This document shows, in pieces, positions 17,436-27,697 of a DNA stretch of 27,697 nt. Numbering within the stretch: position 1 is the stretch's first letter; each line of letters starts with the position of its first letter. A model generated the notes under the pieces. The model worked only from the letters and a program-made list of their open reading frames with translations. It did not search any database and was not told where the DNA came from. Position numbers and translations under genes: made by a program. Source of the stretch: a virus; the IMG/VR virus record IMGVR_UViG_3300009441_000916, positions 1 to 27,697 of that record. One strand, given 5' to 3'.

Positions 17436-19289
17436 TTAGTAGCTGGAAGTAGTTGTGTATCCCACACCTGCCTCAGCACTTCCTCCTACAAAACTATCAG
17501 CTGTAACCGTTATACTTGAATTTCCAATATCCATTTCAACAATTTGGTCTCTAACTGGAACAACATCATTAGAACTTGGTGTTACTTTTAATTCAACTAC
17601 TGTTGACACAACGCCTCTAATATTTGATATACTCGCAATGTTTAATGAATTGACTGTTATTGCACCTGTACTATAATCAATAGTACCTTGCGCTGAATTT
17701 AAATAAGATTTTACACCACTAGCTAAATAATATAATCTTACATTACCTGCGCCATCATCATCAAAAAAGCATTCATTATCATTACCATCTATTTTAAATC
17801 CTGATGAAGTTAATATACCACCTGTTGTTGATAAATGTCCAGAGTGTGGATTATATAATGCATTTCTAAAATATATACTATATTTTGAAGATGTTAAAAG
17901 TATAGGTTGGAAAGATTTTCTTATTTTAACAGTTGTGATGTTTGATAAAATACTATCATCTGTACTATCAATCAAACCTGTAACTTTTGAAAATCTGAAT
18001 ATTGAATCAAACTTTTGTAAAGTAGAAGCATTATAAGTTATTAACTTATCAACAACATCTGCCTTTATAGTATCAGCAGTTTTTGCTGTTGCCCTTGCGT
18101 CATACTTAACATTTGAAGTAATTAATACAGAAGTTGTTTCTGGATCTTTTATAATTGGTCTTACTGAAGCAACGTTATATGGTTTTAATTGAGTTACAAT
18201 ATCTTGTTTTGTTGTATCAGTTAAAATTTCTCCTGATTTTGCTTTGATTGAAATATTTACAACACCATATGTTGGAGTTTCATCATCTTCTCCACCCCAC
18301 GCACTAACTGATAATGCATTTGGATAAATTGATTTAATTAACGTTTCATAATCAGTTGCTGTAACTGCTCTATCTTGAGCACCATATTGTAAAGGTGCAT
18401 TAAATTTTATTGATTCATTTGTTTCTCCAATTGCACCACCAGAAGAATTTGATTCAGTTGTTAGAGTTACATTTGTAAAACCACCAACATTTCCTGATAA
18501 TGAAAATTTTGAAGCGCCGTTTGAATTTACTGTATTAGTTATAACGTATTCTAATATAATAACATTACCATCATCTAATTTTTTACCTGTTACACCATCA
18601 CCAAAATAAATTTCATACTTATTACTAGAACCTTCTTGTATAAAAAATGCTTTTGTTTCACTTGATACATTATTATAACCACCCGCTAAAGTATAAATGC
18701 TTTGCGTTGTATCTGTATTACTAGTTTGAACGGTAACTTTTAAAGTTGAAGTATCTGCTGAAGAACTAGGTATAAGAAATTTCTGGTCAGTATCATTTAC
18801 ATCATACGTATATTTAAATGTAACCAATGTTCCTTCATAAAGAGGTACATTTTCAAATTTATAAATTCCATTTACTGGTGTAATTGTTATATCTTCATTA
18901 GTTACGTATTGATATTCAACTGCGTCAACTGTAGTTGAGAAAACTGTTCCCTTCTGCATTGTAACCGAGGAACCTGTTGCATTATTAACTACAACATCAA
19001 CATAAGCTCTTGGTGCTCTAGGAGATGTAGGAGTATATCCTAACATCTTTGCTAATGAAACAATATTTTTTCTAATATCAGCACTATCCAAATACATTTC
19101 ATTAGTTGACATATTAGCAATGTATGACAAGTAATGGGTGTTATAAGATAGTACATCTAATAGAATAGATAAACTTGAACCTTCAAAATCATAGTCTTGA
19201 AACTGTGTTTGACTTTGTAAAAAAGTTTTTAAATTTACTTTTATTTTATCAAAATCTAATTCTGATACTTCTAGTTTATGTTGCGACAT
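17436..19289 (-). CDS. 6: Baseplate wedge protein gp6 (baseplate J family)
   Basis: 617 residues against 660 in T4. The N-terminal ~110 residues (FDKIKVNLKTFLQSQTQFQDYDFEGS, then LLDVLSYNTHYLSYIANMSTNEMY) match the diagnostic opening of gp6/baseplate J proteins, including the EGSxLSILLDVLSYNTHY stretch. This is followed by a beta domain, YEIYFGDGVTGKKLDDG (the F-G-D-G-x-x-G motif of baseplate J), and AVTATDYETLI near residue 320, another conserved family segment. gp6 dimers form the inner ring of the baseplate and make the iris that opens on sheath contraction. AAGGAT lies in the end of gp25, nine bases before the ATG, and the two genes are one base apart. Confidence 0.93.
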   Translation of the reverse strand: MSQHKLEVSELDFDKIKVNLKTFLQSQTQFQDYDFEGSSLSILLDVLSYNTHYLSYIANMSTNEMYLDSADIRKNIVSLAKMLGYTPTSPRAPRAYVDVVVNNATGSSVTMQKGTVFSTTVDAVEYQYVTNEDITITPVNGIYKFENVPLYEGTLVTFKYTYDVNDTDQKFLIPSSSADTSTLKVTVQTSNTDTTQSIYTLAGGYNNVSSETKAFFIQEGSSNKYEIYFGDGVTGKKLDDGNVIILEYVITNTVNSNGASKFSLSGNVGGFTNVTLTTESNSSGGAIGETNESIKFNAPLQYGAQDRAVTATDYETLIKSIYPNALSVSAWGGEDDETPTYGVVNISIKAKSGEILTDTTKQDIVTQLKPYNVASVRPIIKDPETTSVLITSNVKYDARATAKTADTIKADVVDKLITYNASTLQKFDSIFRFSKVTGLIDSTDDSILSNITTVKIRKSFQPILLTSSKYSIYFRNALYNPHSGHLSTTGGILTSSGFKIDGNDNECFFDDDGAGNVRLYYLASGVKSYLNSAQGTIDYSTGAITVNSLNIASISNIRGVVSTVVELKVTPSSNDVVPVRDQIVEMDIGNSSITVTADSFVGGSAEAGVGYTTTSSY

Positions 19290-19290
19290 C

Positions 19291-19794
19291 TTATCTTATC
19301 CTTTGTAAAGTAACTGAAACTGATTGTGGATTAGGTACACCTATAATATTAAAATAAATTTCTACTTGTAATCTGTTTTCATCTATAGCAGTACTTCTTA
19401 TTGGTCCTGCTATTTCATCTGCTCTTGAACCTTCTCCAAACTCATCTTCATTTATTCTAATACCAGTTAACTGGATTCTAGGTTCGTGATTAACTAAACA
19501 CTCTTCTATTTTTCTTTTTATAAACACATTAGTAACTGGACTATAATTTTCAAAAAGTAATTCTCTTACACCACAACCTAATTCAGGATGGAAAGGTCTT
19601 TCATAAAAATTTGTTTGTACTAAATTTCTGACTGCTCTTTTTATTGCTATTGCGTCTTCAACCACATTAACGTCATTAGTAATTGGATGTCTACCAAAGT
19701 CTAAATCCAAATCTTTAAACTTCCTAGATTGTCGTTTACTAGTACTTTTAACGTGCTTTGTATAATCGTTTAAAAATGATTGATTCTGTGCCAT
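19291..19794 (-). CDS. 25: Baseplate wedge protein gp25 (GPW/gp25 family)
   Basis: 167 residues, somewhat longer than the 132 of T4 gp25. The core DLDLDFGRHPITNDV, then EDAIAIKRAVRNLVQTNFYERPFHPELGCGVRELLFE, is the diagnostic gp25 signature. The E-R-P-F-H-P-E-L-G-C motif corresponds to the conserved ERxxxPxFG segment that contacts gp6 and gp53 and helps nucleate the sheath. The N-terminal ~25 residues (Lys/Arg/Ser-rich) are an extension, and the C-terminus is a beta strand pair. The gene is directly preceded by a TATAAATA late promoter whose expected start point is only a few bases before the ATG, so its own transcript would be nearly leaderless. It can also be read from the upstream bL12/PAAR transcript. 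Confidence 0.93.
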   Translation of the reverse strand: MAQNQSFLNDYTKHVKSTSKRQSRKFKDLDLDFGRHPITNDVNVVEDAIAIKRAVRNLVQTNFYERPFHPELGCGVRELLFENYSPVTNVFIKRKIEECLVNHEPRIQLTGIRINEDEFGEGSRADEIAGPIRSTAIDENRLQVEIYFNIIGVPNPQSVSVTLQRIR

Positions 19795-19803
19795 AACTGT
19801 ATA

Positions 19804-19811
19804 TATTTATA
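19804..19811 (-). promoter_or_regulatory. T4-like late promoter before gp25
   Basis: Perfect TATAAATA on the minus strand, nine bases before the gp25 ATG. With the usual T4 spacing the transcript would start about four bases before the ATG, with no ribosome binding site in the leader. Confidence 0.7.
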
Positions 19812-19815
19812 CAGT

Positions 19816-20121
19816 TTAACCCGCTCTTACGTTATTTGATCCATCAATCATTGCTCCCATATCAAAAGAATCTCCAACTCTTGCTATACTTTTACCTTGA
19901 GCTCTAACTGTAAAAGAACCTATATTAACTCTGGCTCCCATATGTGAAATACACGGTGGTATCGGGTTTTCTATGGTATGTGGTAAGGCAGGATCAAGAA
20001 TCCTGAGAATTGGTTTATTGTTTGCTCTAACTGTAAATTGTGTTGCTTTAACACCTATAACAGGATCACAACCGTGACCAGTTGCTCCTAAATCTATTAT
20101 ATCTCTACACACCTTTGGCAT
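19816..20121 (-). CDS. PAAR-like tail spike tip protein
   Basis: 101 residues from ATG 20121 (MPKVCRD...); a TTG at 20163 would add 14 residues but lies within the preceding tiny gene and is unlikely. The protein is short, Gly/Pro-rich and beta-repetitive. It has GATGHGCDPV at 13-22, TQFTVRANNKPILRILDP, a central HTIENPIPPCISHMGA and a second near-copy SFTVRAQGKSIARVGD. The twice-used FTVRAxxKxIxR phrase and conserved His/Cys residues fit the PAAR fold, a cone that caps the gp5 spike and binds a metal with His/Cys. T4 gp5.4 has the same role. The start overlaps the TAA of the tiny upstream gene (TAATG), indicating coupled translation. gp25 and gp6 follow directly. Confidence 0.85.
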   Translation of the reverse strand: MPKVCRDIIDLGATGHGCDPVIGVKATQFTVRANNKPILRILDPALPHTIENPIPPCISHMGARVNIGSFTVRAQGKSIARVGDSFDMGAMIDGSNNVRAG

Positions 20122-20216
20122 TATGCCAATATCCAAAGAACTACTATTACTACTAATACCCAATTAGGACAAGAATTTTTACTCATCCATTCTTTAACTT
20201 CTTTTATTTCTATCAT
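20121..20216 (-). CDS. Tiny putative membrane peptide, 31 aa
   Basis: A 31-codon frame: polar N-terminal half (MIEIKEVKEWMSKNSCPN) and a hydrophobic C-terminal half of about 13 residues (WVLVVIVVLWILA). Its ATG overlaps the TGA of bL12 (ATGA), and its TAA overlaps the ATG of the PAAR gene (TAATG), so it fits exactly in the gap with both junctions coupled. This arrangement, plus the abrupt hydrophobic end, argues for a real gene rather than chance. The hydrophobic stretch is short for a transmembrane helix and there is no signal cleavage site. The function is unknown; holin-like activity or a purely coupling function are both unsupported. Confidence 0.5.
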   Translation of the reverse strand: MIEIKEVKEWMSKNSCPNWVLVVIVVLWILA

Positions 20217-20575
20217 TTTAATTCTACCGTTCCTCCAACAGACTCTATATCTGCTTTAATTTTATCTGCATCCTTTTTTTCTTGGTCTTCTGCTATAACA
20301 GAAGGAAACTCTTCTACAAAAGTCTTTGCTTCAAGTAATCCCATATCTTTAAAAGCTCTAATTGCTTTAATAACACCTATTTTAGCACCTGCATTAAAAC
20401 CTGTTAAGACAACTTTGAATAAAGACTCTTCTTTTTCTTCTGATACTGCCGCTGGTGTACTTGTTAAAGTGTTTAAATCTAAACCCCAAGTTTTCTCTAA
20501 CCTTTTTGCTAAGTCACCTGCTTCAATAACTGTTAACTTACCTAATTGTTCTACTAACGTATCAATATTTGACAT
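20213..20575 (-). CDS. rplL: Ribosomal protein bL12 (L7/L12)
   Basis: 120 residues from ATG 20575, almost the E. coli length of 121. GGA lies seven bases upstream; a TTG at 20587 would add four residues and lacks support. The N-terminal dimerisation domain (LVEQLGKLTVIEAGDLAKRLEKTWGL), a short Ala/Ser/Glu hinge and a complete C-terminal domain are all present. The factor-binding helix AKIGVIKAIRAF keeps the Lys, Ile, Lys and Arg equivalent to E. coli K65, I69, K70 and R73, and LLEAK keeps the K84 equivalent. bL12 forms the ribosomal stalk that recruits and activates EF-Tu, EF-G, IF2 and RF3. Viral bL12 genes have been reported in aquatic phages. Here it lies inside the late baseplate operon between a small basic protein and the spike tip, so it should be made late. 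Incorporation into host ribosomes is inferred. Confidence 0.93.
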   Translation of the reverse strand: MSNIDTLVEQLGKLTVIEAGDLAKRLEKTWGLDLNTLTSTPAAVSEEKEESLFKVVLTGFNAGAKIGVIKAIRAFKDMGLLEAKTFVEEFPSVIAEDQEKKDADKIKADIESVGGTVELK

Positions 20576-20576
20576 T

Positions 20577-20783
20577 TTATCTTCCAATCTTATCTCTTCT
20601 ACCGATAGGTAGTTTTTGCCACTTGGTCATTTCTTGACCTTTCTTACTTACCCACTCAATATAGATTAATTTTTCTTTCACTTTATTTTGAAAAGACTTA
20701 ACTGCCTTTTTCCAACTCGTAGCAGTTATTTCTTCATTTATTTCTTTGTTATCTGTAAACTTAAACTTTTTTTTCTTTGACAT
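20577..20783 (-). CDS. Small basic phage protein, 68 aa
   Basis: 68 residues, strongly basic (many Lys at the start, KLPIGRRDKIGR at the end), with a central Trp-containing segment (TSWKKAVKSFQNKVKEKLIYIEWVSKKGQ) that may form one helix and two strands. I recognise no family. AAAAGG about ten bases before the ATG lies inside the preceding Cys-rich gene, and the stop is one base before the bL12 ATG, so it is co-translated with bL12. The basic charge could suit RNA or ribosome binding, which its neighbour would make attractive, but nothing in the sequence proves this. It would be the first normally led gene after the late promoter at 20929-20936. Confidence 0.65.
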   Translation of the reverse strand: MSKKKKFKFTDNKEINEEITATSWKKAVKSFQNKVKEKLIYIEWVSKKGQEMTKWQKLPIGRRDKIGR

Positions 20784-20922
20784 TCTTTTTTTTCCTTTTC
20801 ACTTTACATTTTTTATCATCACATCTACAATATTTACAGATTTCTATGTTTCTAGCTTCCATCATTTCAAATTTGGGTTCTCCACAATGGGATTCCCTAC
20901 CACAAGTATTGCAATATGTCAT
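20761..20922 (-). CDS. Cys-rich mini-protein, possible zinc ribbon (53 aa)
   Basis: 53 residues with seven Cys: C4-x2-C7, C13, C29-x2-C32-x-C34 and C39, then a very basic tail (KVKRKKKNVKEKK). Two CxxC pairs about 22 residues apart fit a small zinc ribbon. The ATG at 20922 has no ribosome binding site and lies only six bases after a TATAAATA late promoter, so it would be read from a leaderless message or not at all; a GTG two codons upstream is an alternative. The 3' end overlaps the next gene by 23 bases. The Cys pattern in an AT-rich background is unlikely to be accidental, so I keep it as a gene of unknown role, perhaps nucleic-acid binding. Confidence 0.5.
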   Translation of the reverse strand: MTYCNTCGRESHCGEPKFEMMEARNIEICKYCRCDDKKCKVKRKKKNVKEKKV

Positions 20923-20928
20923 AAACAC

Positions 20929-20936
20929 TATTTATA
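20929..20936 (-). promoter_or_regulatory. T4-like late promoter heading the bL12-baseplate operon
   Basis: Perfect TATAAATA on the minus strand at the upstream edge of the whole leftward virion module. I see no sigma-70 -35 at proper spacing. With T4 spacing, transcription begins at or within a base of the ATG at 20922. Confidence 0.72.
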
Positions 20937-21071
20937 ATAAAAATTACAAGTGTAAAGTGCCTACTGATTCGAAAATTTGTTGAAAATTTACAGTTTTTTA
21001 GAAAATAGAACAAAAATAGAACAACAAAGTAAGAAAACCTTGATTTTTCTCATTTTTTTTAAATTTTTCCC

Positions 21072-21100
21072 TTGACTTTACTAAATTTTTAGTGTATAGT
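21072..21100 (+). promoter_or_regulatory. Sigma-70-type early promoter (+ strand)
   Basis: TTGACT (21072-21077), a 17-base spacer and TATAGT (21095-21100): one mismatch in each hexamer at optimal spacing. It lies 28 bases before a membrane-protein ATG with a good ribosome binding site, so that gene is probably transcribed early by unmodified host polymerase. The surrounding stretch 20937-21071 is very A/T-rich and otherwise shows only a TGATTCGAAAA motif at 20965-20975. Confidence 0.75.
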
Positions 21101-21128
21101 TAACGTATAAGTTGAAAAGGAAAACATT

Positions 21129-21335
21129 ATGAAAAAACTATATGAATATTTAACAATTATTTGTTCTATATTAGGTACTTTTATGTTAATTGGTGCTGTC
21201 GGCGCAATTGACGGCGGTTATCACGGAATACCTATGAACGATAATTGGTTTTTGTGTGGTACTTTGTCATTGTTAGGAATTGCTATGTTTATTTTAGCAC
21301 TATACTCGCAAACATTGTATTCTGAACAAGACTAA
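21129..21335 (+). CDS. Small two-helix membrane protein, 68 aa
   Basis: 68 residues. It has a short basic N-terminus (MKKLYEY), a first hydrophobic helix (LTIICSILGTFMLIGAVGAI), a polar Gly/Asn/Asp loop (DGGYHGIPMNDN) and a second helix (WFLCGTLSLLGIAMFILALY), with a short acidic C-terminus. It is therefore a helical hairpin in the inner membrane. AAAGG lies eight bases before the ATG and a sigma-70 promoter just upstream, so it is a stand-alone early gene on the opposite strand to its neighbours. The stop overlaps the convergent hemC stop by four bases. I recognise no family. Superinfection exclusion or host membrane modification is typical for small early membrane proteins of T4-like phages, but that is speculation here. 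Confidence 0.75.
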   Translation: MKKLYEYLTIICSILGTFMLIGAVGAIDGGYHGIPMNDNWFLCGTLSLLGIAMFILALYSQTLYSEQD

Positions 21336-22210
21336 ACACTAGATTTTAGTAAATGACCTATTTCTATTCCTAGGTCGGCTGCTTTATCAATACTTTTAAA
21401 TGATTTTGAATAAAATCTATCTTTACCATCTGGTGAAAATAGTTCAGCTTCAAGATTAATCGTATTATCATCAATACTTGCAAATACACCTACCGCTGTA
21501 TCACAATCTCCTTCTATAACTTTTAAAACGTTTCTTTCTGCCTTAACACAATTATGTGTTGCTGTATGATTAACACTTTTTAATAATTCAATTATTTCTT
21601 TATCATTATTTCTACATTGTAAGGCAATAACTCCTTGACCAGCACAAGGTATCATTTCACTAGTTGTAAAAGTTTGAGAAATCTTGTTCTCTAAACCTAA
21701 TGATTGAATACCAGCATAAGATAAGATAATAGCATCAAATAAACCTTCATTAAGTTTTCTTATTCTTGTATCAACATTTCCTCTTATCAACTTACAATTA
21801 AGGTCTTCTCTTATTCTTTTTAATTGGAATTCTCTTCTAAATGAAGAAGTACCGATAATTGAATTTGGAGCTAAATCTTTTAAGTGTTTATTATCTCTAC
21901 TAATTAAAACTTCTCTTGGATCGTTTCTTTCTAAAAAACAGTTTGTTAATAAACCTTCTGTTTCTTCTGTTGGCATATCTTTTAATGCGTGAACAGCTAT
22001 ATCAATTTTTTTACTTAATAATTCTTCTTCAATCTTTTTAGAAAATAGTCCTTTACCTCCAGCTTCAGAAAGTCTTACATCTTTAAGTTGGTCACCCTTG
22101 GTTTCAATTTCTTTGATAATTACTTCTTTGTTTAATAATGCTTTAGCTTTTTCAGCATAGATACGTGCTAATTTACTTCCTCTTGATCCTATTATGAGTG
22201 ATGTCGGCAT
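21332..22210 (-). CDS. hemC: Hydroxymethylbilane synthase (porphobilinogen deaminase)
   Basis: 292 residues, close to the usual 300-315. It joins four porphobilinogens into hydroxymethylbilane in tetrapyrrole synthesis, in the cytoplasm. Visible family marks: IGSRGSKLA at 7-15, TKGD near 37-40, GGKGLFSKKIE at 51-61, HALKDMP at 74-80 with the catalytic Asp (D78, E. coli D84), GTSSFRR at 120-126 and RGNVDTR at 143-149 (cofactor-binding Arg residues). AGQG lies at 190-193, and EGDC has the dipyrromethane-cofactor Cys at 236 (E. coli C242). It therefore looks catalytically competent. It is the last gene of the leftward accessory operon and overlaps hemB by 19 bases. A weak AGAAG site precedes the ATG. 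The C-terminal domain is short but complete. Confidence 0.95.
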   Translation of the reverse strand: MPTSLIIGSRGSKLARIYAEKAKALLNKEVIIKEIETKGDQLKDVRLSEAGGKGLFSKKIEEELLSKKIDIAVHALKDMPTEETEGLLTNCFLERNDPREVLISRDNKHLKDLAPNSIIGTSSFRREFQLKRIREDLNCKLIRGNVDTRIRKLNEGLFDAIILSYAGIQSLGLENKISQTFTTSEMIPCAGQGVIALQCRNNDKEIIELLKSVNHTATHNCVKAERNVLKVIEGDCDTAVGVFASIDDNTINLEAELFSPDGKDRFYSKSFKSIDKAADLGIEIGHLLKSSV

Positions 22211-22986
22211 AATCTTCTTGCACCATAAGTTATCATATAATCAGCACCTGCTCTTTTGAATACGTGATATGTTTCTTCTAAATTACCAGGCTCACCTATT
22301 CCTAGATACTCACCTGAAGTTTGATATGCACCTACTTTTTTTCTTGTAAAGTATTTTATTGGTCCTATTAAATCTAAACTTGTTATACCAGGTTTTACCA
22401 TTAATTCATCTGCACCATCTTTAGCATATTTTACTGACCTTTCAATTGCACCGAATCTATCTGAAACATCTAATTGATAGGGTCTATGAATACCTTTTGG
22501 TATCTTCATTACATTACGCCAACCGCTATAAAACGTTGAACGAAATTTTGTACTATAACTCATTACAGGTATCTGACCATCATTAACTGCTTTAATATTC
22601 TTAACTGTATTGTCTTGACAATCACTTGGTGCTACTGTAGCACCTGACGCTGTGTAAATCTCTACGGCTGATTGTAATAATAGGTCATCTGTTTTTTCTT
22701 GGTCTCCTGTTACACAACAATGTCCATCGTGTGTATAAGAACATAAACATACATCAACATTTAATTTTATAGGTAACGTTGAAAGACTAGCGGCAGTTTC
22801 ACACACTTGGTTAAAGTTAAATAACTTAAATTCAGGTATGTAAAATAAAAGAAATTCTTTTACTCCTAAATCAATATCTTTCTTAACACGTTCAATGACT
22901 TCTTTAGTATTAAAGATTTTATTATCTTCTCCTAGTCCAGTTTCTCTTGTAGAATTACTGGCGAATATCGGTTGTATTAATCTCAT
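22192..22986 (-). CDS. hemB: Delta-aminolevulinic acid dehydratase (porphobilinogen synthase), N-terminally short
   Basis: 264 residues against 320-340 in most bacteria. It condenses two ALA into porphobilinogen. Zinc-type active site: DVCLCSYTHDGHC supplies C80, C82 and C90 (E. coli C120, C122, C130). Schiff-base lysines are K147 (MSYSTKF) and K198 (LMVKPG), matching E. coli K195 and K247. YQTSGEY at 221-227 and KRAGADYMITY near the end are also conserved. It begins MRLIQPIF, the barrel's first strand, so the ~28-residue N-terminal arm that clasps the neighbouring subunit and supports the octamer is absent, along with a further ~12 residues in the following loops. The start is firm: AAAGGA lies eight bases upstream and the ATG abuts the hemE stop. 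APSDCQD replaces the common APSxMMDG. It is probably active, with possibly altered assembly. Confidence 0.94.
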   Translation of the reverse strand: MRLIQPIFASNSTRETGLGEDNKIFNTKEVIERVKKDIDLGVKEFLLFYIPEFKLFNFNQVCETAASLSTLPIKLNVDVCLCSYTHDGHCCVTGDQEKTDDLLLQSAVEIYTASGATVAPSDCQDNTVKNIKAVNDGQIPVMSYSTKFRSTFYSGWRNVMKIPKGIHRPYQLDVSDRFGAIERSVKYAKDGADELMVKPGITSLDLIGPIKYFTRKKVGAYQTSGEYLGIGEPGNLEETYHVFKRAGADYMITYGARRLCRHHS

Positions 22987-23979
22987 TTAATAATCCTTTA
23001 CTGTTTTAACCAAATAATCAACCATATTAGGATCCGTTTCTTTTATAACACCGTGTCCTAAATTAAATATGTATGGATGGTCTTTGAAAATATTTAAGTA
23101 TTTTAAAGTTTGTTTTTTTAAATTTTCTTTATCTGTTAATAATACTTTAGGATCAAGTCCTCCTTGAACAGGAATATCTATTTCTTTGCATATAGAAATT
23201 GGGTCTACATCATAATCAATATTGACTACATCAGGTTTAACAATATTACAGTACTCTTTATAATTTTTAATACCTCTTGGAAAACAAATTACAGGAACAT
23301 TTAAAGACTTAACATAATTAACTAAATTTAATGTTGGTTTATAAACATACTCTGGTAAGTTTTTTTCTTCTAACAAACCAGCCCAACTATCAAAAATTTG
23401 TATTATCGTAGCTCCTGCTTTAATTTGTCGTTCAATGTGTATTTTTAAATACTTTTCTAAAATTATTAATGTTTTATTAATTAAAATTTTATCTTTAAAA
23501 AAGTCTTTTATTAGTTCTTTTTTAGGAGAGTGTTTATTAATCATATAAACTAAAAGAGTCCAAGGCGCACCCACAAAACCTATTACATTTTTATTTTTAA
23601 CTAACTTATTTTCACTTACTCTTTTTATAGATTTGTAAATAGGATATAATGTTCCTATAAAATCAATTTCATCTATAACATCTAAATCTAAATCACCTAA
23701 TTGTGGACCAACGTCTTTCTTAAATTCTACTATTTGATTTAACCCATACGGCAACATTAAGATGTCTGAAAAAATTATAGCAGCGTCTAGTTCAAATCTT
23801 TTAAGAGGTTGTAAGGTAATCTCGGAAGATAACTCAACATCTAAACATAAACTAATAAAATCTGGATTTAGTTTTCTAATCTCTCTAAACTCTGGAAGAT
23901 ACCTTCCTGCTTGCCTCATTAACCATATTGGTGTATTGGTTGTTTTTTTATTTAGTATAGTATCTTCAATGGGTGTCAT
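22987..23979 (-). CDS. hemE: Uroporphyrinogen decarboxylase
   Basis: 330 residues, slightly below the usual 345-355. It removes four acetate carboxyls from uroporphyrinogen III to give coproporphyrinogen III, the step that commits flux to heme or chlorophyll rather than siroheme or cobalamin. Both family signatures are present: PIWLMRQAGR at 17-26 and GFVGAPWT at 134-141. FSDIL carries the catalytic Asp (D72), Y145 sits after the second signature, QGGLDP is at 272-277, and NLGHG at 306-310 holds the active-site His. All key residues are kept. The ATG overlaps the TGA of the DUF454 gene (ATGA), and hemB follows with no gap. The codons are as A/T-rich as the neighbours, so any transfer from a host is old or came from a similarly A/T-rich host. 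Confidence 0.95.
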   Translation of the reverse strand: MTPIEDTILNKKTTNTPIWLMRQAGRYLPEFREIRKLNPDFISLCLDVELSSEITLQPLKRFELDAAIIFSDILMLPYGLNQIVEFKKDVGPQLGDLDLDVIDEIDFIGTLYPIYKSIKRVSENKLVKNKNVIGFVGAPWTLLVYMINKHSPKKELIKDFFKDKILINKTLIILEKYLKIHIERQIKAGATIIQIFDSWAGLLEEKNLPEYVYKPTLNLVNYVKSLNVPVICFPRGIKNYKEYCNIVKPDVVNIDYDVDPISICKEIDIPVQGGLDPKVLLTDKENLKKQTLKYLNIFKDHPYIFNLGHGVIKETDPNMVDYLVKTVKDY

Positions 23980-24386
23980 TTAAGCCAGGCAACCCTTTTA
24001 CCTGCCTTAATTCTTGAGTCTGCAATTTCTTTTGTTGCAGGATATCTCCACGCCCATACAGCACATAAAAACATAAAACTACTTGACCATAGTAATGCAT
24101 TAAGATTGTATGTTGTATACCAAAGAAATACTAATGAACTTGACATAACAAGTATCATTGAATATTTTGCATATTGTGGAAAGACTTTGTACTTTGTCCA
24201 ACCTGTTAAAAACTTACCAAAGTATTTGTGATTGTATAACCAGTCGTGCCATTTTTTAGATGATTTAGCAAATGCCCAAGCGGCAATTACTAGAAATATG
24301 CTAAATGGTATACCAGGTGTAATTACACCAATGTATGCCATACCCACACATAACCAACCTAATGTTAAATATAAATATCGTTTCAT
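23976..24386 (-). CDS. DUF454 (YbaN-like) inner-membrane protein
   Basis: 136 residues. The opening LTLGWLCVGMAYIGVITPGIP followed by FLVIAAWAFAKSSKKWHDWLYNHKYFG matches the DUF454/YbaN pattern: a Gly-rich first helix pair with a P-G-x-P turn, then A-A-x-x-F-A-+-S-S and a W-L-x-x-H-x-x-F-G segment. There are about four hydrophobic segments in all, with the last two near residues 78-112. The biochemical function of this family is not established. AGGA lies about nine bases before the ATG, and its stop overlaps the hemE start. Its coupling to heme enzymes and to an Fe(II) oxygenase-like gene is suggestive of a membrane role in the same physiology, but this is context-based inference. Confidence 0.85.
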   Translation of the reverse strand: MKRYLYLTLGWLCVGMAYIGVITPGIPFSIFLVIAAWAFAKSSKKWHDWLYNHKYFGKFLTGWTKYKVFPQYAKYSMILVMSSSLVFLWYTTYNLNALLWSSSFMFLCAVWAWRYPATKEIADSRIKAGKRVAWLK

Positions 24387-24395
24387 AATTTTTTC

Positions 24396-25103
24396 CTATT
24401 TTATGTCAGCTGCTACTCTTGAAGCAAAGCTAGATTGTTCTTGTTGTGTTTGTATTTCTTCAAGTGTCTTTGATTCATCTTTAGGATGATTAAAGTATAA
24501 ATTGCCTGATACACTTATTCTTTCTCCTTTTGTTTTAAAAGGAATTACTTGATGTCTTAATTGTGCAGGAAATATCCATAAGGTTCCTACTTCAGGATTA
24601 TAACCATATGTATGTTCTGCCCATTTTGGATTAGAGTGTTCACCATAATGAAACGTTATTCCACCAGGACCAAAACTCTTGCCTTTATAATTTGCTCTTT
24701 CTTCTGTTAAGTCTGGCGTCTTTAAATACATAACCCAAGTTAACATACCACTATGTGTATGTTCAGGATTAGCTTCATTCTCTTTCATATAATTCGCCCA
24801 TAAATCTATGAGTGTGAATTTTTTTGAAAATAAGTTTTCATCATATTGTTGTGAAATATAGTCTGCCATACTTTCTACATAATCATCTACGTATTGTTGA
24901 AACTCTTTTATAAACCATTTTTTATCTTCTTGTGGAAACCTTCGTTGGTCTTCCATTATACCTGCTAATTTTTCATTACCAGATCCTGGTTTACTTTTTT
25001 CACCTCGTTCTGTAAGTTCTGCTATAAATTCAGGATGCACTCTATACATAGCCACATACGGACCAAAATTTAAATTGCCACCTTTTTGTTCTTTATCTAT
25101 CAT
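24396..25103 (-). CDS. 2-oxoglutarate/Fe(II) dioxygenase-like protein
   Basis: 235 residues with the layout of phage 2OG-Fe(II) oxygenases. A helical N-terminal half comes first, then HTHSGMLTWVMYLKTP (H115, H117), a loop with GGITFHYGE, GTLWIFPAQLRHQVIPF (distal H184) and a 2OG-binding Arg in GERISVSGNLYFN (R195). The Fe(II) site is normally HxD...H. Here the aspartate is not obvious after H115 or H117, so the first ligand pair is uncertain. Substrates of such phage enzymes are mostly unknown. The ATG overlaps the stop of the upstream membrane protein gene, and DUF454 follows nine bases later. As iron-dependent enzymes and heme share iron demand, its place before the hem genes is notable. 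Confidence 0.82.
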   Translation of the reverse strand: MIDKEQKGGNLNFGPYVAMYRVHPEFIAELTERGEKSKPGSGNEKLAGIMEDQRRFPQEDKKWFIKEFQQYVDDYVESMADYISQQYDENLFSKKFTLIDLWANYMKENEANPEHTHSGMLTWVMYLKTPDLTEERANYKGKSFGPGGITFHYGEHSNPKWAEHTYGYNPEVGTLWIFPAQLRHQVIPFKTKGERISVSGNLYFNHPKDESKTLEEIQTQQEQSSFASRVAADIK

Positions 25104-25279
25104 AATGGATATTGTTCTGTTGGCGGTATTACATCATCATTATCTAAATACTTATCTGATATAATTGATAATGTAACTGCTATCATAGCAAGTCCAATTA
25201 TCATCCAAAGACCCTTTCCTTCTTCCCAGTTTGTTAATATTGACCATAGTACTTGTAGTCCGTTCATTTCATCATACAT
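25100..25279 (-). CDS. Small single-helix membrane protein, 59 aa
   Basis: I place the start at ATG 25279 (MYDEMNGLQV) because AGAGGAG lies eight bases upstream; an earlier in-frame codon at 25306 would add nine residues without such a site, and the next ATG at 25267 is also possible. One hydrophobic helix (LWMIIGLAMIAVTLSIIS) near residues 25-42 follows an N-terminal Trp/Glu-containing stretch, and an acidic C-terminus (DKYLDNDD) follows. The start overlaps the end of the preceding gene by 16 bases, and the stop overlaps the oxygenase start (ATGA). No family is recognised; it is a bitopic inner-membrane protein in the accessory operon. Confidence 0.65.
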   Translation of the reverse strand: MYDEMNGLQVLWSILTNWEEGKGLWMIIGLAMIAVTLSIISDKYLDNDDVIPPTEQYPL

Positions 25280-25476
25280 TGTGCTAACTCCTCTAAATCT
25301 TTCCAAAGTATATGTTTTAAAACATTTTTTTGTTTTACTTTATTAGATTGTTTCTTCTTATCTACAACTTTTAAAAAGTCAGGATAATTCTTATTTAGTT
25401 TCTTAATTATTGTTTTATATTCTTTTACGCTTCTTACATAATATTTCTTATTGCTCAATTTTTCTGTTATGTTCAT
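25264..25476 (-). CDS. Small basic protein, 70 aa, unrecognised
   Basis: 70 residues, very Lys-rich (NKKYYVRSVKEYKTIIKKLNKNYPDFLKVVDKKKQ, here cited only as a basic, helical stretch). A C-terminal helix (LWKDLEELAQCMMK) is amphipathic. There is no membrane segment or known motif. The ATG overlaps the TGA of the preceding 160-residue protein (ATGA), and the stop lies within the next membrane protein gene. Early T4-like phage operons contain many such small basic proteins that bind host factors, but no target can be named. Confidence 0.6.
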   Translation of the reverse strand: MNITEKLSNKKYYVRSVKEYKTIIKKLNKNYPDFLKVVDKKKQSNKVKQKNVLKHILWKDLEELAQCMMK

Positions 25477-25955
25477 CTTATGTCGTCCATTCTGTGTAAA
25501 ATTGCTTCTTGTTGTCTTTCATTATAAAACCTTATATGTTCTTCATCTGTAATAATTCCTTTTCGTCCATCACGTATAATTATCTTTAGTTCTTTACCTG
25601 TTAAATAAATTACTGGTGAGATATACCAGGTGCCTTGATAACTATAAGGTTTATTAACATCTGGATCCATAACGTAATCATATTTACTTTCTTGTTTCGG
25701 TATCGTATCATAATGCATTCCATTTTTATCTATGTTCCAACAATGATGTATAATAGGTGTTGCATTGATACTTTCATTATAATTATCAATCAACCAACCT
25801 GTTATAAACTTCGTCCCAAAGTTTTTTGCTTCTACAACAGACATAGAAATACACTCACGTCTTTGATAATCACTATTCGGTCTATGTTCAACCTTTTCTA
25901 TGTATTGTGCATTAGGTCTGTACTTTAGAAATTGTTGGGTCGCTTCTTTCATCAT
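25473..25955 (-). CDS. Unrecognised phage protein, 160 aa
   Basis: 160 residues, soluble, with a mixed alpha/beta look. A notable central part reads GWLIDNYN, then TPIIHHCWNID and GMHYDTIP, with several His, Trp and Asp that could form a metal or catalytic site. The C-terminal 40 residues are charged and helical (EEHIRFYNERQQEAILHRM). I do not recognise the family. The ATG is doubled (MMKEA), so the start may be one codon later, with only a weak GAAAAG upstream. It overlaps the preceding gene by 44 bases and the following by four, as is usual in this operon. His/Cys in HHCW invite a test for metal binding, but no function is assigned. Confidence 0.7.
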   Translation of the reverse strand: MMKEATQQFLKYRPNAQYIEKVEHRPNSDYQRRECISMSVVEAKNFGTKFITGWLIDNYNESINATPIIHHCWNIDKNGMHYDTIPKQESKYDYVMDPDVNKPYSYQGTWYISPVIYLTGKELKIIIRDGRKGIITDEEHIRFYNERQQEAILHRMDDIR

Positions 25956-26115
25956 TATTTTTACTTTTCACTAATTTATCTTTTAATGCTAACTTAATCT
26001 TTTTTAAGTCTTTTAAATCTTTCCAACTAGAGAAAGACCTATCGTTATTTCTTACCTCTTCTGATTGATTTACTTTTCTTTTTAACTCTTTGTGATTTGC
26101 TTTTAATAGCGCCAT
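25912..26115 (-). CDS. Small helical protein, DUF465-like ending, 67 aa
   Basis: 67 residues, highly charged, almost certainly a helical hairpin or coiled coil. The stretch LKDLKKIKLALKDKL resembles the C-terminal helix of DUF465/YdcH proteins (a K-L/K-x-x-K-L-x-L-K-D-E/K pattern), and HKELKRKVNQSEE could be the first helix; the match is weak and from memory. AAGGGA lies just before the ATG, so initiation is strong although the start sits 71 bases inside the upstream gene. The 3' end overlaps the next gene by 44 bases. Such long overlaps on both sides are unusual even here. Confidence 0.55.
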   Translation of the reverse strand: MALLKANHKELKRKVNQSEEVRNNDRSFSSWKDLKDLKKIKLALKDKLVKSKNNDERSDPTISKVQT

Positions 26116-26467
26116 ATTTGTCCCTTTCGTCTATATCGTGAATTCTTGGATTATATCCTTTAGGCCAATTCAGATTAATATGTAATGTAGAATCATCTTG
26201 ACATACTATTCTTATCTGGTGTCCAGTCGGTGTAGAGTTATCCCAATATCGTTTATAATTATTAATATTGATAACTTGATGTTTTAGTTTTTTTGATTTT
26301 TTTTCTACAGCGTCAAACATACTATTGTTGGGCGTGTTATTTGCTAAGTCATTCAGAAACTTATCATCAGGTGTACTCAATGCGTCATACGTTGCACTAT
26401 AGATACCTGAGTCTTCTGATTGAGCAACCTTTTGAGCAAAGGTCTCCATCATATTCTTTTTATTCAT
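26045..26467 (-). CDS. Unrecognised phage protein, 140 aa, first gene of the accessory operon
   Basis: 140 residues, hydrophilic. An N-terminal acidic, probably disordered region (ALSTPDDKFLNDLANNTPNN) is followed by a beta-like middle (HQIRIVCQDDSTLHINLNWPKG) and a very basic tail (KSKSQRVKKKSKSIRRGKK) suited to nucleic-acid or ribosome binding. No family is recognised. GGAG lies seven bases before the ATG. A four-codon frame (ATG AAT GAA TAA) overlaps the leader just before it. The gene is directly behind a near-consensus sigma-70 promoter and heads the transcript that ends with hemE-hemB-hemC. Confidence 0.65.
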   Translation of the reverse strand: MNKKNMMETFAQKVAQSEDSGIYSATYDALSTPDDKFLNDLANNTPNNSMFDAVEKKSKKLKHQVININNYKRYWDNSTPTGHQIRIVCQDDSTLHINLNWPKGYNPRIHDIDERDKYGAIKSKSQRVKKKSKSIRRGKK

Positions 26468-26487
26468 TCATAATCTCCTATTTGTCT

Positions 26488-26516
26488 ATAATACTATTTA
26501 TAACGTCAAATGTCAA
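26488..26516 (-). promoter_or_regulatory. Near-consensus sigma-70 promoter of the accessory/hem operon, with embedded late word
   Basis: On the minus strand TTGACA (26511-26516), a 17-base spacer and TATTAT (26488-26493): perfect -35 and one mismatch in -10. The spacer contains TATAAATA (26495-26502), so the same site could also serve a late sigma factor. Transcription would start near 26481, about 14 bases before the 140-residue gene's ATG with GGAG in the leader. No other strong promoter was seen down to hemC. Confidence 0.8.
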
Positions 26517-26570
26517 CTCTCCCTCGTTGCCCGCTCACAGCAACTACGATTGATTCGAAAAATTTAAGAC

Positions 26571-26599
26571 TTGACAAACAGCCATATACCTGTTATTAT
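26571..26599 (+). promoter_or_regulatory. Near-consensus sigma-70 promoter facing right, with adjacent late word
   Basis: TTGACA (26571-26576), a 17-base spacer and TATTAT (26594-26599), the same form as the divergent promoter 60 bases away. TATAAATA overlaps the -10 at 26597-26604. The transcript would start near 26606 and run through the 26628-26909 frame. The two -35 boxes are separated by 54 bases that contain a TGATTCGAAAA motif at 26551-26561. Confidence 0.78.
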
Positions 26600-26627
26600 A
26601 AATATAACTTTAGAAGGCTGCTACAAA

Positions 26628-26909
26628 ATGAAGTGAATTGTTCCTACTAAAAACAAAATCATTATAGAATCCCACCACAGTAGTCACTGCTTTTCCGATG
26701 TCGACTTTATCGTCTATTGCCAAAAAGCCCTTTATAGTCATTCACCATACAGAATAAGAATAACAGACTGGGAGCCAGAGTACTGTATTCTTTACATACA
26801 AACATTAAGAACCTATCATAGATGGAAGCCACTTACCTTTAAATACGTAAGACGTGGTCACTATATCTTTGTATGGAATAAGAGATATGTAAAAGGAAGA
26901 CGTTATTGA
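26628..26909 (+). other. Possible gene with in-frame TGA at codon 3, or RNA transcript
   Basis: Behind the promoter at 26571-26599, ATG 26628 is followed by AAG and then TGA (26634-26636). After it the same frame stays open for 90 codons to TGA 26907-26909. The would-be protein is rich in Tyr, His, Arg and Trp (for example YHRWKPLTFKYVRRGHYIFVW) and ends KGRRY. No ATG, GTG or TTG occurs in frame after the TGA, so translation would need an ATT start, readthrough of UGA, or the TGA to be a mutation or assembly error. AGAAGG lies ten bases before the ATG. The codons use more C-ending triplets (CAC, TAC, GTC, GAC) than neighbouring genes. It could instead be a short RNA. The rest of the gap, 26910-27049, shows only a weak CTCC/GGAG hairpin near 26928-26942. 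Confidence 0.45.
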
Positions 26910-27049
26910 TTTTGTTTGTTTGCCTTACTCCGTAACTTGGAGCATTCTTGAAGGACTGACACAGTTATATATAAGTTAGATGTTTCCGACTACGTAAGCA
27001 AAGACTATGAATATTATCACCAATATATAAACACTAAGCAAGGTTGCAC

Positions 27050-27415
27050 CTAATCATCTAGTCTATTATCCTCAGGCCAAACCTCATTAAACTTATCCCT
27101 TGCACGTAGGACTACTTTGCGACCAGGAGGTGCAAGTTTCTTAACTAACCAAGTAGGATCAAACTTCTCCCATTCAAATCTGTAATGTTCATTTTCAGGT
27201 ACCCAAGTAGGGTCTGGTGTTTCGTATGCCTCTTGTGGTAGTTTAGTCCAGATAGAATCAAAGAGTTCCTGTTCACTCAGCATACCCATTTGATTGTACA
27301 CCTTACCGTGCATTTCTTTAGCCATAGATTTCAACTTCTCTTTATTGTATTCTATCTTACGTTGAAAGTCCCAGTACTCTTTAATGTCGGCGTATGATTG
27401 TTTAGTAATAGTCAT
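27050..27415 (-). CDS. Unrecognised phage protein, 121 aa
   Basis: 121 residues. The N-terminal half is charged and helical (ADIKEYWDFQRKIEYNKEKL, then SMAKEMHGKVYNQMG); the C-terminal half is Trp/Pro-rich (DPTWVPENEHYRFEWEKFDPTWL), and PGRKVVLRARDKFNE closes it. No family or membrane segment is recognised. No ribosome binding site precedes the ATG at 27415; instead CCTAAATA, close to the late-promoter word, stands five bases upstream, placing a predicted start point on the ATG itself. It is separated from the next leftward gene by the divergent promoter region, so it ends its own transcription unit. Its codon usage is less A/T-extreme than the hem genes. Confidence 0.68.
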   Translation of the reverse strand: MTITKQSYADIKEYWDFQRKIEYNKEKLKSMAKEMHGKVYNQMGMLSEQELFDSIWTKLPQEAYETPDPTWVPENEHYRFEWEKFDPTWLVKKLAPPGRKVVLRARDKFNEVWPEDNRLDD

Positions 27416-27430
27416 AAGACTATTTAGGGA

Positions 27431-27457
27431 TCCGGCGTTTTTTTGGTGCTGGCCGGA
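27431..27457. repeat. TCCGGC/GCCGGA inverted repeat
   Basis: Perfect 6-base arms (27431-27436 and 27452-27457) around a 15-base loop with a T7 run, flanked on the right by A8. The GC-rich arms stand out in this A/T-rich stretch. The arrangement of the T and A runs does not make a standard terminator on either strand. It lies just upstream of the start signals of the 27050-27415 gene. Confidence 0.55.
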
Positions 27458-27509
27458 AAAAAAATGGCTATCGTTATATACTAAAGTTGTTATTGCATTT
27501 ATAGATTAA

Positions 27510-27532
27510 CTTTTGGTATACTATACTAAAAG
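27510..27532. repeat. 11-bp near-perfect palindrome in intergenic region
   Basis: CTTTTGGTATA and TATACTAAAAG are inverted around a single C at 27521, with one G-T pair as the only imperfection. A second short palindrome CCTATATAGG sits at 27538-27547. The gap 27416-27590 holds no gene that I can support. A TATAAATG word (minus strand, about 27496-27503) is a one-mismatch late promoter. An operator or a weak structure at the end of the right-hand gene are the options. Confidence 0.5.
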
Positions 27533-27590
27533 ACGATCCTATATAGGCCGTTTTTAAAAGTTTTTTTTAATATTTTTTGAGTTGAATTAA

Positions 27591-27697
27591 CTAATTTAAA
27601 TCTATTGTACTACCATAGTGTTTGACTGTGCCACTAGTGGATGATGTCTTCGTGCCTGATATGATTTCTGATTTATAGCCTTCTATTAGACTAGAGT
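27591..27697 (-). CDS. C-terminal end of a gene running in from the right edge
   Basis: Minus-strand frame open from the window edge to TAG at 27591-27593, giving the last ~34 residues: ...SLIEGYKSEIISGTKTSS, then TSGTVKHYGSTIDLN. Ser/Thr/Gly-rich text with alternating hydrophobics suggests the end of a structural protein, but this is too little to name a family. The window edge removes the rest. No clear terminator follows it. Confidence 0.55.
   Translation of the reverse strand, partial: SSLIEGYKSEIISGTKTSSTSGTVKHYGSTIDLN

What the first reader, a model, noticed from the sequence alone, without database searches (positions are those of the whole stretch)
21332..23979. Virus-encoded heme biosynthesis block hemE-hemB-hemC
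Three consecutive, tightly packed genes on the minus strand encode uroporphyrinogen decarboxylase, porphobilinogen synthase and hydroxymethylbilane synthase, each with intact key residues (HemE D72 and both signatures, HemB C80/C82/C90 with K147 and K198, HemC D78 and C236). They sit beside T4-like baseplate genes, so they are part of a phage genome and not a host fragment. Known marine-phage tetrapyrrole genes act mostly at the bilin end (heme oxygenase, bilin reductases); I do not know of a described phage set for the early common steps. It would raise flux from ALA to coproporphyrinogen during infection.
Basis: partly seen in the sequence, partly recalled or inferred. Interest (0 to 1): 0.92.

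Follow-up and report, generated by a model that had tools for sequence, protein, structure and literature searches.

The report
Phage-carried heme synthesis genes
A virus of SAR11, the most abundant ocean bacteria, carries three genes for the shared early steps of heme synthesis, and related marine viruses carry up to five such steps plus two that turn heme into bilin pigments, so these viruses probably keep their host's heme supply running during infection.

Summary
Confirmed, and larger than reported. Window 21332-23979 (minus strand) encodes intact HemE, HemB and HemC in a packed run with a DUF454 gene, in the cargo slot beside T4-like baseplate genes of a pelagimyophage-type phage. A distinct contig matches 19429-27697 at 98.9%, so it is not a chimera. 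23 of 25 contigs found with close HemB or HemC share the surroundings; some have hemF where hemE is here. HemE (83%) and HemC (79%) are SAR11-derived. HemB is not: it belongs to a clade seen only in viral contigs, with a zinc-type cysteine motif and no N-terminal arm; 28 of 33 SAR11-family HemB loci read have the magnesium-type motif. A 177-kb relative has alaS, hemB, hemC, hemF, hemO and a bilin reductase; a 107-kb contig has these plus hemE, with hemF-hemC-hemE-hemB contiguous. hemD was found in none of 30 records, so the host probably supplies it. Phage alaS, hemO, bilin reductase and ferrochelatase are published, and hemF with hemC was mentioned once (2020); I found no report of phage hemB, hemE or the near-complete set. 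Most likely role: sustaining tetrapyrrole flux during infection. Activity is untested. New variant of a known kind.

The parts
21332..22210 (-). hemC, hydroxymethylbilane synthase (292 aa), overlaps hemB by 19 nt
   Evidence: D78 and C236 present; nested in SAR11 in tree
22192..22986 (-). hemB, porphobilinogen synthase (264 aa), zinc-type cysteine motif, no N-terminal arm; clade seen only in viral contigs
22987..23979 (-). hemE, uroporphyrinogen decarboxylase (330 aa), SAR11-derived by identity and tree
23976..24386 (-). DUF454 (YbaN-type) gene, overlaps hemE by 4 nt; near heme genes in several phage contigs, not found in 60 SAR11-family genomes
24396..25103 (-). 2OG-Fe(II) oxygenase, recurring neighbour of the heme cassette
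22999..24396 (.). stretch unmatched in the 177-kb relative (hemE all but 12 bases, plus DUF454), which has hemF here
20213..20587 (-). ribosomal protein L7/L12 homologue, recurring downstream neighbour
19816..20163 (-). PAAR protein
19291..19794 (-). gp25-like baseplate wedge
   Evidence: baseplate wedge family; named gp25 after the Mosig annotation
17436..19289 (-). gp6-like baseplate wedge, 71.8% identical to Pelagibacter phage Mosig
10588..12048 (-). gp8-like baseplate wedge
   Evidence: baseplate wedge family; named gp8 after the Mosig annotation

Best explanation
A pelagimyophage (T4-like phage of SAR11) carries an auxiliary metabolic cassette for the common trunk of tetrapyrrole synthesis. 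HemB joins two ALA to porphobilinogen, HemC links four porphobilinogens into hydroxymethylbilane, host HemD closes the ring, and HemE decarboxylates uroporphyrinogen III to coproporphyrinogen III. This keeps or raises flux towards heme when host gene expression is shut down or bypassed. Relatives carry HemF in the slot, and some also have AlaS, heme oxygenase and a bilin reductase, so the cassette is one part of a modular phage route from glycine and succinyl-CoA through heme to bilins. Shown: intact genes, phage context, recurrence, SAR11 origin of HemC and HemE, a HemB clade seen only in viral contigs, dN/dS mostly well below 1. Inferred: enzyme activity, expression in infection, SAR11 as host, and the benefit (respiration, bilin or iron supply).
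For: Gene identity and residues; solved relatives. Phage context. Distinct contigs of the same lineage: L158 at 98.9% over window 19429-27697 and L030 at 97.5% over 17672-21794. Recurrence of the surroundings in 23 of 25 contigs, with hemF in some. SAR11 source: HemE 83%, HemC 79%, both placed within SAR11; HemF of relatives up to 69%, within SAR11. Pathway partners in one genome: 177-kb G006 has alaS, hemO, bilin reductase, hemF, hemB, hemC; 107-kb G089 has alaS, contiguous hemF-hemC-hemE-hemB, hemO, bilin reductase, DUF454. dN/dS: hemC 0.13-0.20 (5 phage pairs), hemF 0.06-0.29 (10 pairs), hemB 0.24-0.43 (the 9 pairs with the window).
Against: No activity, expression or flux data. The window is a fragment, so whether this phage also has alaS, hemF or hemO is unknown. 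HemB scores below the NCBIfam equivalog cut-off and lacks the arm that helps build normal HemB oligomers (recalled), so its activity is the least certain; its AlphaFold model is poor (mean pLDDT 58), although the 30 best PDB matches are porphobilinogen synthases. hemB dN/dS runs from 0.09 to 1.04 over 45 pairs (the highest at dS 0.02 or less) and resembles the structural gene gp6 (0.37-0.45), so selection on it looks weaker than on hemC. The hemE dN/dS (0.08-0.12) compares phage with SAR11 and so partly measures the host branch. The single-protein HemE scan found hemE in one other viral contig only, the sibling. The cultured relative Mosig has no hem gene in this slot. The HemE of the 107-kb contig scores below its equivalog cut-off (211.3 against 302.95).
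Confidence: 0.75

Rival explanations
1. The cassette mainly feeds phage heme oxygenase and bilin reductase, so its end product is bilins and released iron, not heme for respiration.
For: G006 and G089 carry both halves. A 2OG-Fe(II) oxygenase sits next to the cassette in many relatives. Mosig is reported to have hemO and pcyA/X (PMC11480375).
Against: Heme oxygenase was found in only 2 of 15 viral contigs with hem genes (fragments). None was noticed in the window, which was not searched with that model. Loci with hemB or hemC as the only pathway gene within about 10 kb exist (not each checked to be phage).
Confidence: 0.25
2. The genes are passengers picked up by transduction and are decaying or neutral.
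For: Gene content of the slot varies between close relatives; cultured Mosig has no hem gene there; some very close hemB pairs have dN/dS near 1.
Against: Intact frames and catalytic residues; dN/dS well below 1 for hemC and hemF and for most hemB pairs; a separate HemB clade with conserved motif in 37 of 37 viral rows.
Confidence: 0.05
3. Assembly chimera of phage and SAR11 DNA, or host contamination of a virus record.
For: HemE and HemC resemble SAR11; the record is a 27.7-kb fragment.
Against: A distinct contig aligns in one piece across the block; the surroundings recur in 23 of 25 contigs; the SAR11 hemE locus looks different, with a hemH match within the flanks in 79 of 80 loci and no hemB or hemC match; HemB is not the usual SAR11 type.
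Confidence: 0.01
4. HemB and HemC serve siroheme or cobalamin precursor supply (uroporphyrinogen III) and HemE is incidental.
For: Relatives exist with hemB, or hemB and hemC, but no hemE or hemF in the stretch held.
Against: HemE and HemF, which commit flux to heme, share the slot with hemB and hemC; the hemF-hemC-hemE-hemB cluster in 7 of 139 loci.
Confidence: 0.08

Closest known systems
Phage ALA synthase with hemO and pcyA/X cassette in pelagiphages and freshwater phages (Wegner et al. 2024, PMC11480375; abstract, introduction, section 6, discussion and passages read)
   Same: T4-like pelagiphages carrying tetrapyrrole genes; same reasoning about keeping heme supply in the infected cell; the 177-kb and 107-kb contigs here carry alaS, hemO and bilin reductase genes of these families.
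   Different: The words hemB, hemC, hemF and coprop- do not occur in its main text, and uroporphyrinogen only as an intermediate; supplements and figures not seen. The window acts on the steps after ALA.
Pelagimyophage PMP-MAVG-4 'deep ecotype' with coproporphyrinogen oxidase and porphobilinogen deaminase (Zaragoza-Solas et al. 2020, PMC7029224; passages and section 7 read)
   Same: HemF and HemC as in the hemF-hemB-hemC relatives here; group PMP-A, some of which have L12 as here. Probably the same group of phages (not tested).
   Different: One sentence; HemB and HemE not named in what I read; no analysis of origin or function there.
Ferrochelatase beside 2OG-Fe(II) oxygenase in pelagipodophages (PMC9599517; also PMC11561400; passages read)
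   Same: Heme-pathway gene linked to 2OG-Fe(II) oxygenase in SAR11 phages.
   Different: Last step of the pathway, podovirus-type phages; found here in 1 of 23 contigs (G019).
Viral genes listed as heme biosynthesis in environmental surveys (PMC9301287: ahbD; PMC13390420: ahbD and alaS; PMC13184970: category only; passages read)
   Same: Heme-pathway annotation of viral genes in water samples.
   Different: hemB, hemC, hemF do not occur in PMC9301287; no gene of the window's set was named in the passages of the other two.
Zinc-type bacterial porphobilinogen synthase (E. coli, PDB 1b4e/1i8j; species recalled)
   Same: Cysteine metal motif and both active-site lysines align.
   Different: Phage form lacks the N-terminal arm and some loops: 264 aa against 323.

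Membership tests
Auxiliary metabolic gene cassette of a T4-like pelagimyophage | Genes lie in a phage genome with structural neighbours, at a recurring locus | tested here: met
Auxiliary metabolic gene cassette of a T4-like pelagimyophage | Genes have cellular homologues and a host-like origin | tested here: met
   HemC and HemE; HemB only distantly
Auxiliary metabolic gene cassette of a T4-like pelagimyophage | Expressed in infection and changes host metabolism | not testable with these tools
   no expression data held
Porphobilinogen synthase (HemB) | ALAD family match with the two active-site lysines | tested here: met
   Pfam 2.5e-43; K147 and K198
Porphobilinogen synthase (HemB) | Passes the curated NCBIfam equivalog cut-off | tested here: not met
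   139.9 against 297 bits; HemB of the 107-kb contig 170.8
Porphobilinogen synthase (HemB) | N-terminal arm used in octamer assembly (recalled) | tested here: not met
   in-frame TAA directly before the ATG; alignment
Hydroxymethylbilane synthase (HemC) | Equivalog score, catalytic Asp and cofactor Cys | tested here: met
   319 against 164 bits; D78, C236
Uroporphyrinogen decarboxylase (HemE) | Equivalog score and catalytic Asp | tested here: met
   306.6 against 302.95 bits; D72
Complete phage heme pathway | HemD (uroporphyrinogen III synthase) encoded | tested here: not met
   PF02602 over cut-off in 0 of 30 viral records, window included; control rings in 12 of 14; records may be fragments
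Complete phage heme pathway | Ferrochelatase encoded | tested here: inconclusive
   1 of 23 contigs (G019); the window itself was not in that search
Complete phage heme pathway | Protoporphyrinogen oxidase encoded | not tested
   no family search made
Wegner-type valaS/hemO/pcyX cassette | alaS, hemO and bilin reductase in the same genome | tested here: inconclusive
   present in relative G006; the window is a fragment and was not itself searched with these models

The most novel reading that the evidence does not exclude
Marine T4-like phages carry a modular, nearly self-sufficient tetrapyrrole route (AlaS, HemB, HemC, HemE, HemF, then HemO and bilin reductase) in which the host supplies only HemD and the last two heme steps. 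Its HemB is a phage-specific, arm-less, zinc-type enzyme that stands in for the host's magnesium-type HemB and escapes its assembly-based control, so ALA made by the phage cannot stall at the host's porphobilinogen step.
Probability: 0.35. Interest if true: 0.85.

Novelty: new variant of a known kind. Interest (0 to 1): 0.72.

Why it matters
Tetrapyrrole genes in phages have been read mainly as bilin or ALA tools. Here marine phages hold the middle of the pathway too, which makes the open question 'what do phages gain from tetrapyrrole genes' testable as a whole path. The HemB form was found only in viral contigs (the only bacteria searched for it were SAR11-family genomes) and has a different metal motif from most SAR11 HemB read here. 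Linkage of DUF454 to heme genes is a hint at the role of a family of unknown function. SAR11 is among the most abundant groups of ocean bacteria, so control of its heme budget by phages could matter for iron and respiration at sea.

Tried and rejected
Chimera or host contamination: rejected and the synteny. Hits in the annotated phage collection (9 records for HemB, 10 for HemC, 12 for HemE, 2 for HemF; and with HemB, HemE and HemF of the 107-kb contig 9, 12 and 2) are all under 60% identity; the rows shown are named for Listeria, Salmonella, Staphylococcus, Escherichia and Acinetobacter phages, Salmonella strains and unnamed faecal phages, none a marine phage (2 of 12 rows not shown). I read most as bacterial sequence in the records, my judgement, not tested. 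The tools warn that records very near the window may be left out there. HemB structure prediction gave low confidence (mean pLDDT 58). The unknown 277-aa gene between hemF and hemB in some relatives gave 36 and had no Pfam match, so its function stays open. Promoter-like sites in 20000-27697 are at chance level, 38 found against 40.0 expected. The HemC and HemE profile scans of viral contigs gave 218 and 153 relatives, of which only the best 80 each were kept; many carry one hem gene only in the stretch held, I did not check each for being phage, and two HemC records look like isolate genomes by their number (recalled numbering), so I do not use these totals as phage counts. The HemE tree has a very long phage branch (L042) and the second HemB tree a long-branch warning, so deep placements there are unsure. 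Trees used part of what was held: 45 of 80 SAR11 HemE loci; the 30 SAR11 loci returned of 55 genomes with a HemC match and of 55 with a HemF match; identical rows dropped; HemB rows trimmed to the conserved start. In one search the host 'Mg' labels were given by default and were checked by motif only later. In one search one SAR11 hemC (L201) dropped out. Literature searches for phage hemB, hemE and the set: (one search was on DUF454); only the open PubMed Central library, no preprints; supplements not read.
Full report
What is in the window. The record is an IMG/VR virus fragment of 27,697 bases. On the minus strand hemE (22987-23979), hemB (22192-22986) and hemC (21332-22210) lie in one packed run: hemC overlaps hemB by 19 nt, hemB abuts hemE, and hemE overlaps a DUF454 gene (23976-24386) by 4 nt; a 2OG-Fe(II) oxygenase precedes it. 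Pfam E-values are 1.2e-80 (URO-D), 2.5e-43 (ALAD) and 5.1e-73 (Porphobil_deam). HemC and HemE pass the NCBIfam equivalog cut-offs, HemE narrowly; HemB does not (139.9 against 297 bits).

Phage context. Downstream lie an L7/L12 homologue, a PAAR protein and gp25- and gp6-like baseplate genes, then a gp8-like gene. gp6 is 71.8% identical to Pelagibacter phage Mosig EXVC030M. From gp25 to the far end the window is collinear with Mosig, and none of the hem proteins matches the 41.8-kb Mosig stretch that I fetched. So the hem genes sit in a cargo slot of a pelagimyophage-type genome. That the host is SAR11 is inferred from Mosig and from the origin of HemE and HemC.

Not a chimera.

Recurrence and modularity. 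Scans of viral contigs with the window proteins gave 22 loci for HemB, 12 for HemC and one for HemE, the sibling contig: 25 contigs in all. In 23 of them neighbours of the window cassette flank the hem genes as far as the contigs reach; some of these contigs are nearly alike. L019 and L020 have hemB in another neighbourhood, though a relative of one upstream window gene lies near. In several relatives an oxygen-dependent coproporphyrinogen oxidase, hemF (Pfam 6.4e-90; equivalog 331.3 against 297), lies where hemE is here: DNA of the 177-kb contig G006 aligns up to window 22998 and again from 24397, leaving out hemE (all but its last 12 bases) and DUF454, and carries hemF there. Arrangements seen are hemE-hemB-hemC, hemF-hemB-hemC, hemF-g277-hemB-hemC, and hemB with other neighbours.

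The rest of the pathway. Family searches in 23 viral contigs found HemE in 5, ALA synthase in 7 and ferrochelatase in 1. Heme oxygenase was found in 2 of 15. HemD was found over the cut-off in 0 of 30 records, the window included, with the control ringing in 12 of 14 genomes; one weak partial match in the 400-kb contig G098 stayed under the cut-off. G006 (177 kb, T4 portal present) holds alaS, hemF, hemB, hemC, heme oxygenase and a bilin reductase. G019 (43.6 kb) holds alaS, hemC, hemF, hemE and hemH; that it is a phage rests on its IMG/VR listing and one PHROG match of unknown function. Among 139 viral loci left after removing duplicates from 212, 7 have a contiguous hemF-hemC-hemE-hemB run, 3 of them with alaS within the stretch held. 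One of these, the 107-kb G089, also has DUF454, heme oxygenase and bilin reductase. G089 looks like a phage by its ribonucleotide reductase (70.1% to Mosig), phage-family DNA ligase and a PAAR/baseplate-hub match, but no T4 portal was found in it; it may be incomplete. Its HemE scores below the equivalog cut-off (211.3 against 302.95) and its HemF just above (299.6 against 297). Protoporphyrinogen oxidase was not searched.

Where the genes came from. The best bacterial HemE matches are SAR11 at 83%, and the tree puts window HemE with three SAR11 genomes (SH-aLRT 84, not starred; 45 of 80 SAR11 loci used). HemC is 79% identical to that of one of these genomes (G001), and all 7 near phage HemC rows form a clade within SAR11 next to G001 and G054 (98). 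HemF of the relatives lies in another SAR11 group (99), best identity 69%. HemB is different. In 60 SAR11-family genomes 48 had a match, 43 of them weak (33-39% over part of the protein) and 5 stronger (42-45% over nearly all of it). Of the 33 host HemB loci that I hold, the 5 stronger ones have the three-cysteine motif of zinc enzymes and 28 have the Ala-Asp-Asp motif of magnesium enzymes, G001 among them (the metal assignment of the motifs is recalled). The 37 distinct viral HemB rows form one clade against 9 host rows (98), all with three cysteines; 66 of 67 locus-level hits, duplicates included, start within 8 residues of the same place, the other being cut by its contig end. The tool warns of long branches in this tree. 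Apart from SAR11-family genomes no bacteria were searched for this form, so 'phage-only' holds for this sample. The window hemB ATG directly follows an in-frame TAA, so an arm cannot be encoded. That the arm builds the octamer is recalled.

Selection. Nei-Gojobori dN/dS (own script): hemC 0.13-0.20 for five phage pairs with the window and 0.15 against one SAR11 genome; hemF 0.06-0.29 for ten pairs; hemB 0.24-0.43 for the nine pairs with the window and 0.09-1.04 for all 45 pairs, the highest for pairs with dS of 0.02 or less; hemE 0.08-0.12 against three SAR11 genomes; gp6 0.37-0.45 for five pairs. This fits working enzymes, with weaker evidence for hemB.

DUF454. It lies against hemE here, beside hemB or in the same cassette in others, and against alaS in G017, G020 and G022, that is 3 of the 7 fetched contigs with alaS; in G089 it lies far from the hem genes. 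It was found in 0 of 60 SAR11-family genomes. One paper reports a DUF454 gene raised under iron restriction in Avibacterium (PMC7970244, passages). A role in heme or porphyrin handling is my inference.

Mechanism. Best supported: the phage supplies trunk enzymes so that tetrapyrrole synthesis continues or increases in the infected cell, with host HemD closing the ring. HemE and HemF commit uroporphyrinogen to heme. Why the phage gains from it (respiratory cytochromes, bilins, iron release) is open; G006 and G089 show that synthesis and breakdown genes can share a genome.

Known and new. Phage AlaS is published and active, with hemO and pcyA/X (PMC11480375: abstract, introduction, section 6, discussion, passages). 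One pelagimyophage was said to have coproporphyrinogen oxidase and porphobilinogen deaminase (PMC7029224; passages and section 7). Ferrochelatase in pelagipodophages is known (PMC9599517, PMC11561400; passages). Surveys list viral heme-biosynthesis genes such as ahbD and alaS (PMC9301287, PMC13390420) or the category alone (PMC13184970) (passages). PHROGs version 4 gave no match for window HemB, for window HemC and HemE, or for the HemF, AlaS and HemH of relatives that I tested. My literature searches found no report of phage hemB or hemE or the joined set; they cover only the open library, without supplements. I therefore rate it a new variant of a known kind.

Noticed in passing
L007:3570-4403 (also L005, L006, L008, L009, L011, L023): A 277-aa protein of unknown function with conserved cysteines sits between hemF and hemB, or near hemB, in several relatives; no Pfam match and a poor structure model.
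   Followed up: partly
window 20213-20587: Phage-encoded ribosomal protein L7/L12 homologue beside the heme cassette; L12 in some pelagimyophages is published (PMC7029224 passage).
   Followed up: partly
L139:9942-10940 (contig G019): A 43.6-kb viral contig carries ferrochelatase with alaS, hemC, hemF and hemE, five heme-pathway enzymes.
   Followed up: partly
L376 (contig of 399,796 bases, G098): A very large viral contig with a T4-type portal has a HemE relative (33%) and a HemC relative.
   Followed up: no
L171-L175 (genomes G050, G059, G082, G067, G037): Five of 60 SAR11-family genomes have a zinc-type HemB; four of them have the HemC match in a much longer frame of 493-516 aa, possibly a HemC-HemD fusion (not tested).
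   Followed up: no
L020:8895-10004: A DruA-like protein (Pfam PF14236, 1.4e-11) is encoded directly upstream of hemB in another viral contig.
   Followed up: no
L428:7009-14238 (contig G089): Several ORFs in a row with cysteine-rich starts that resemble radical-SAM proteins (named from recall, no search) in the 107-kb contig.
   Followed up: no
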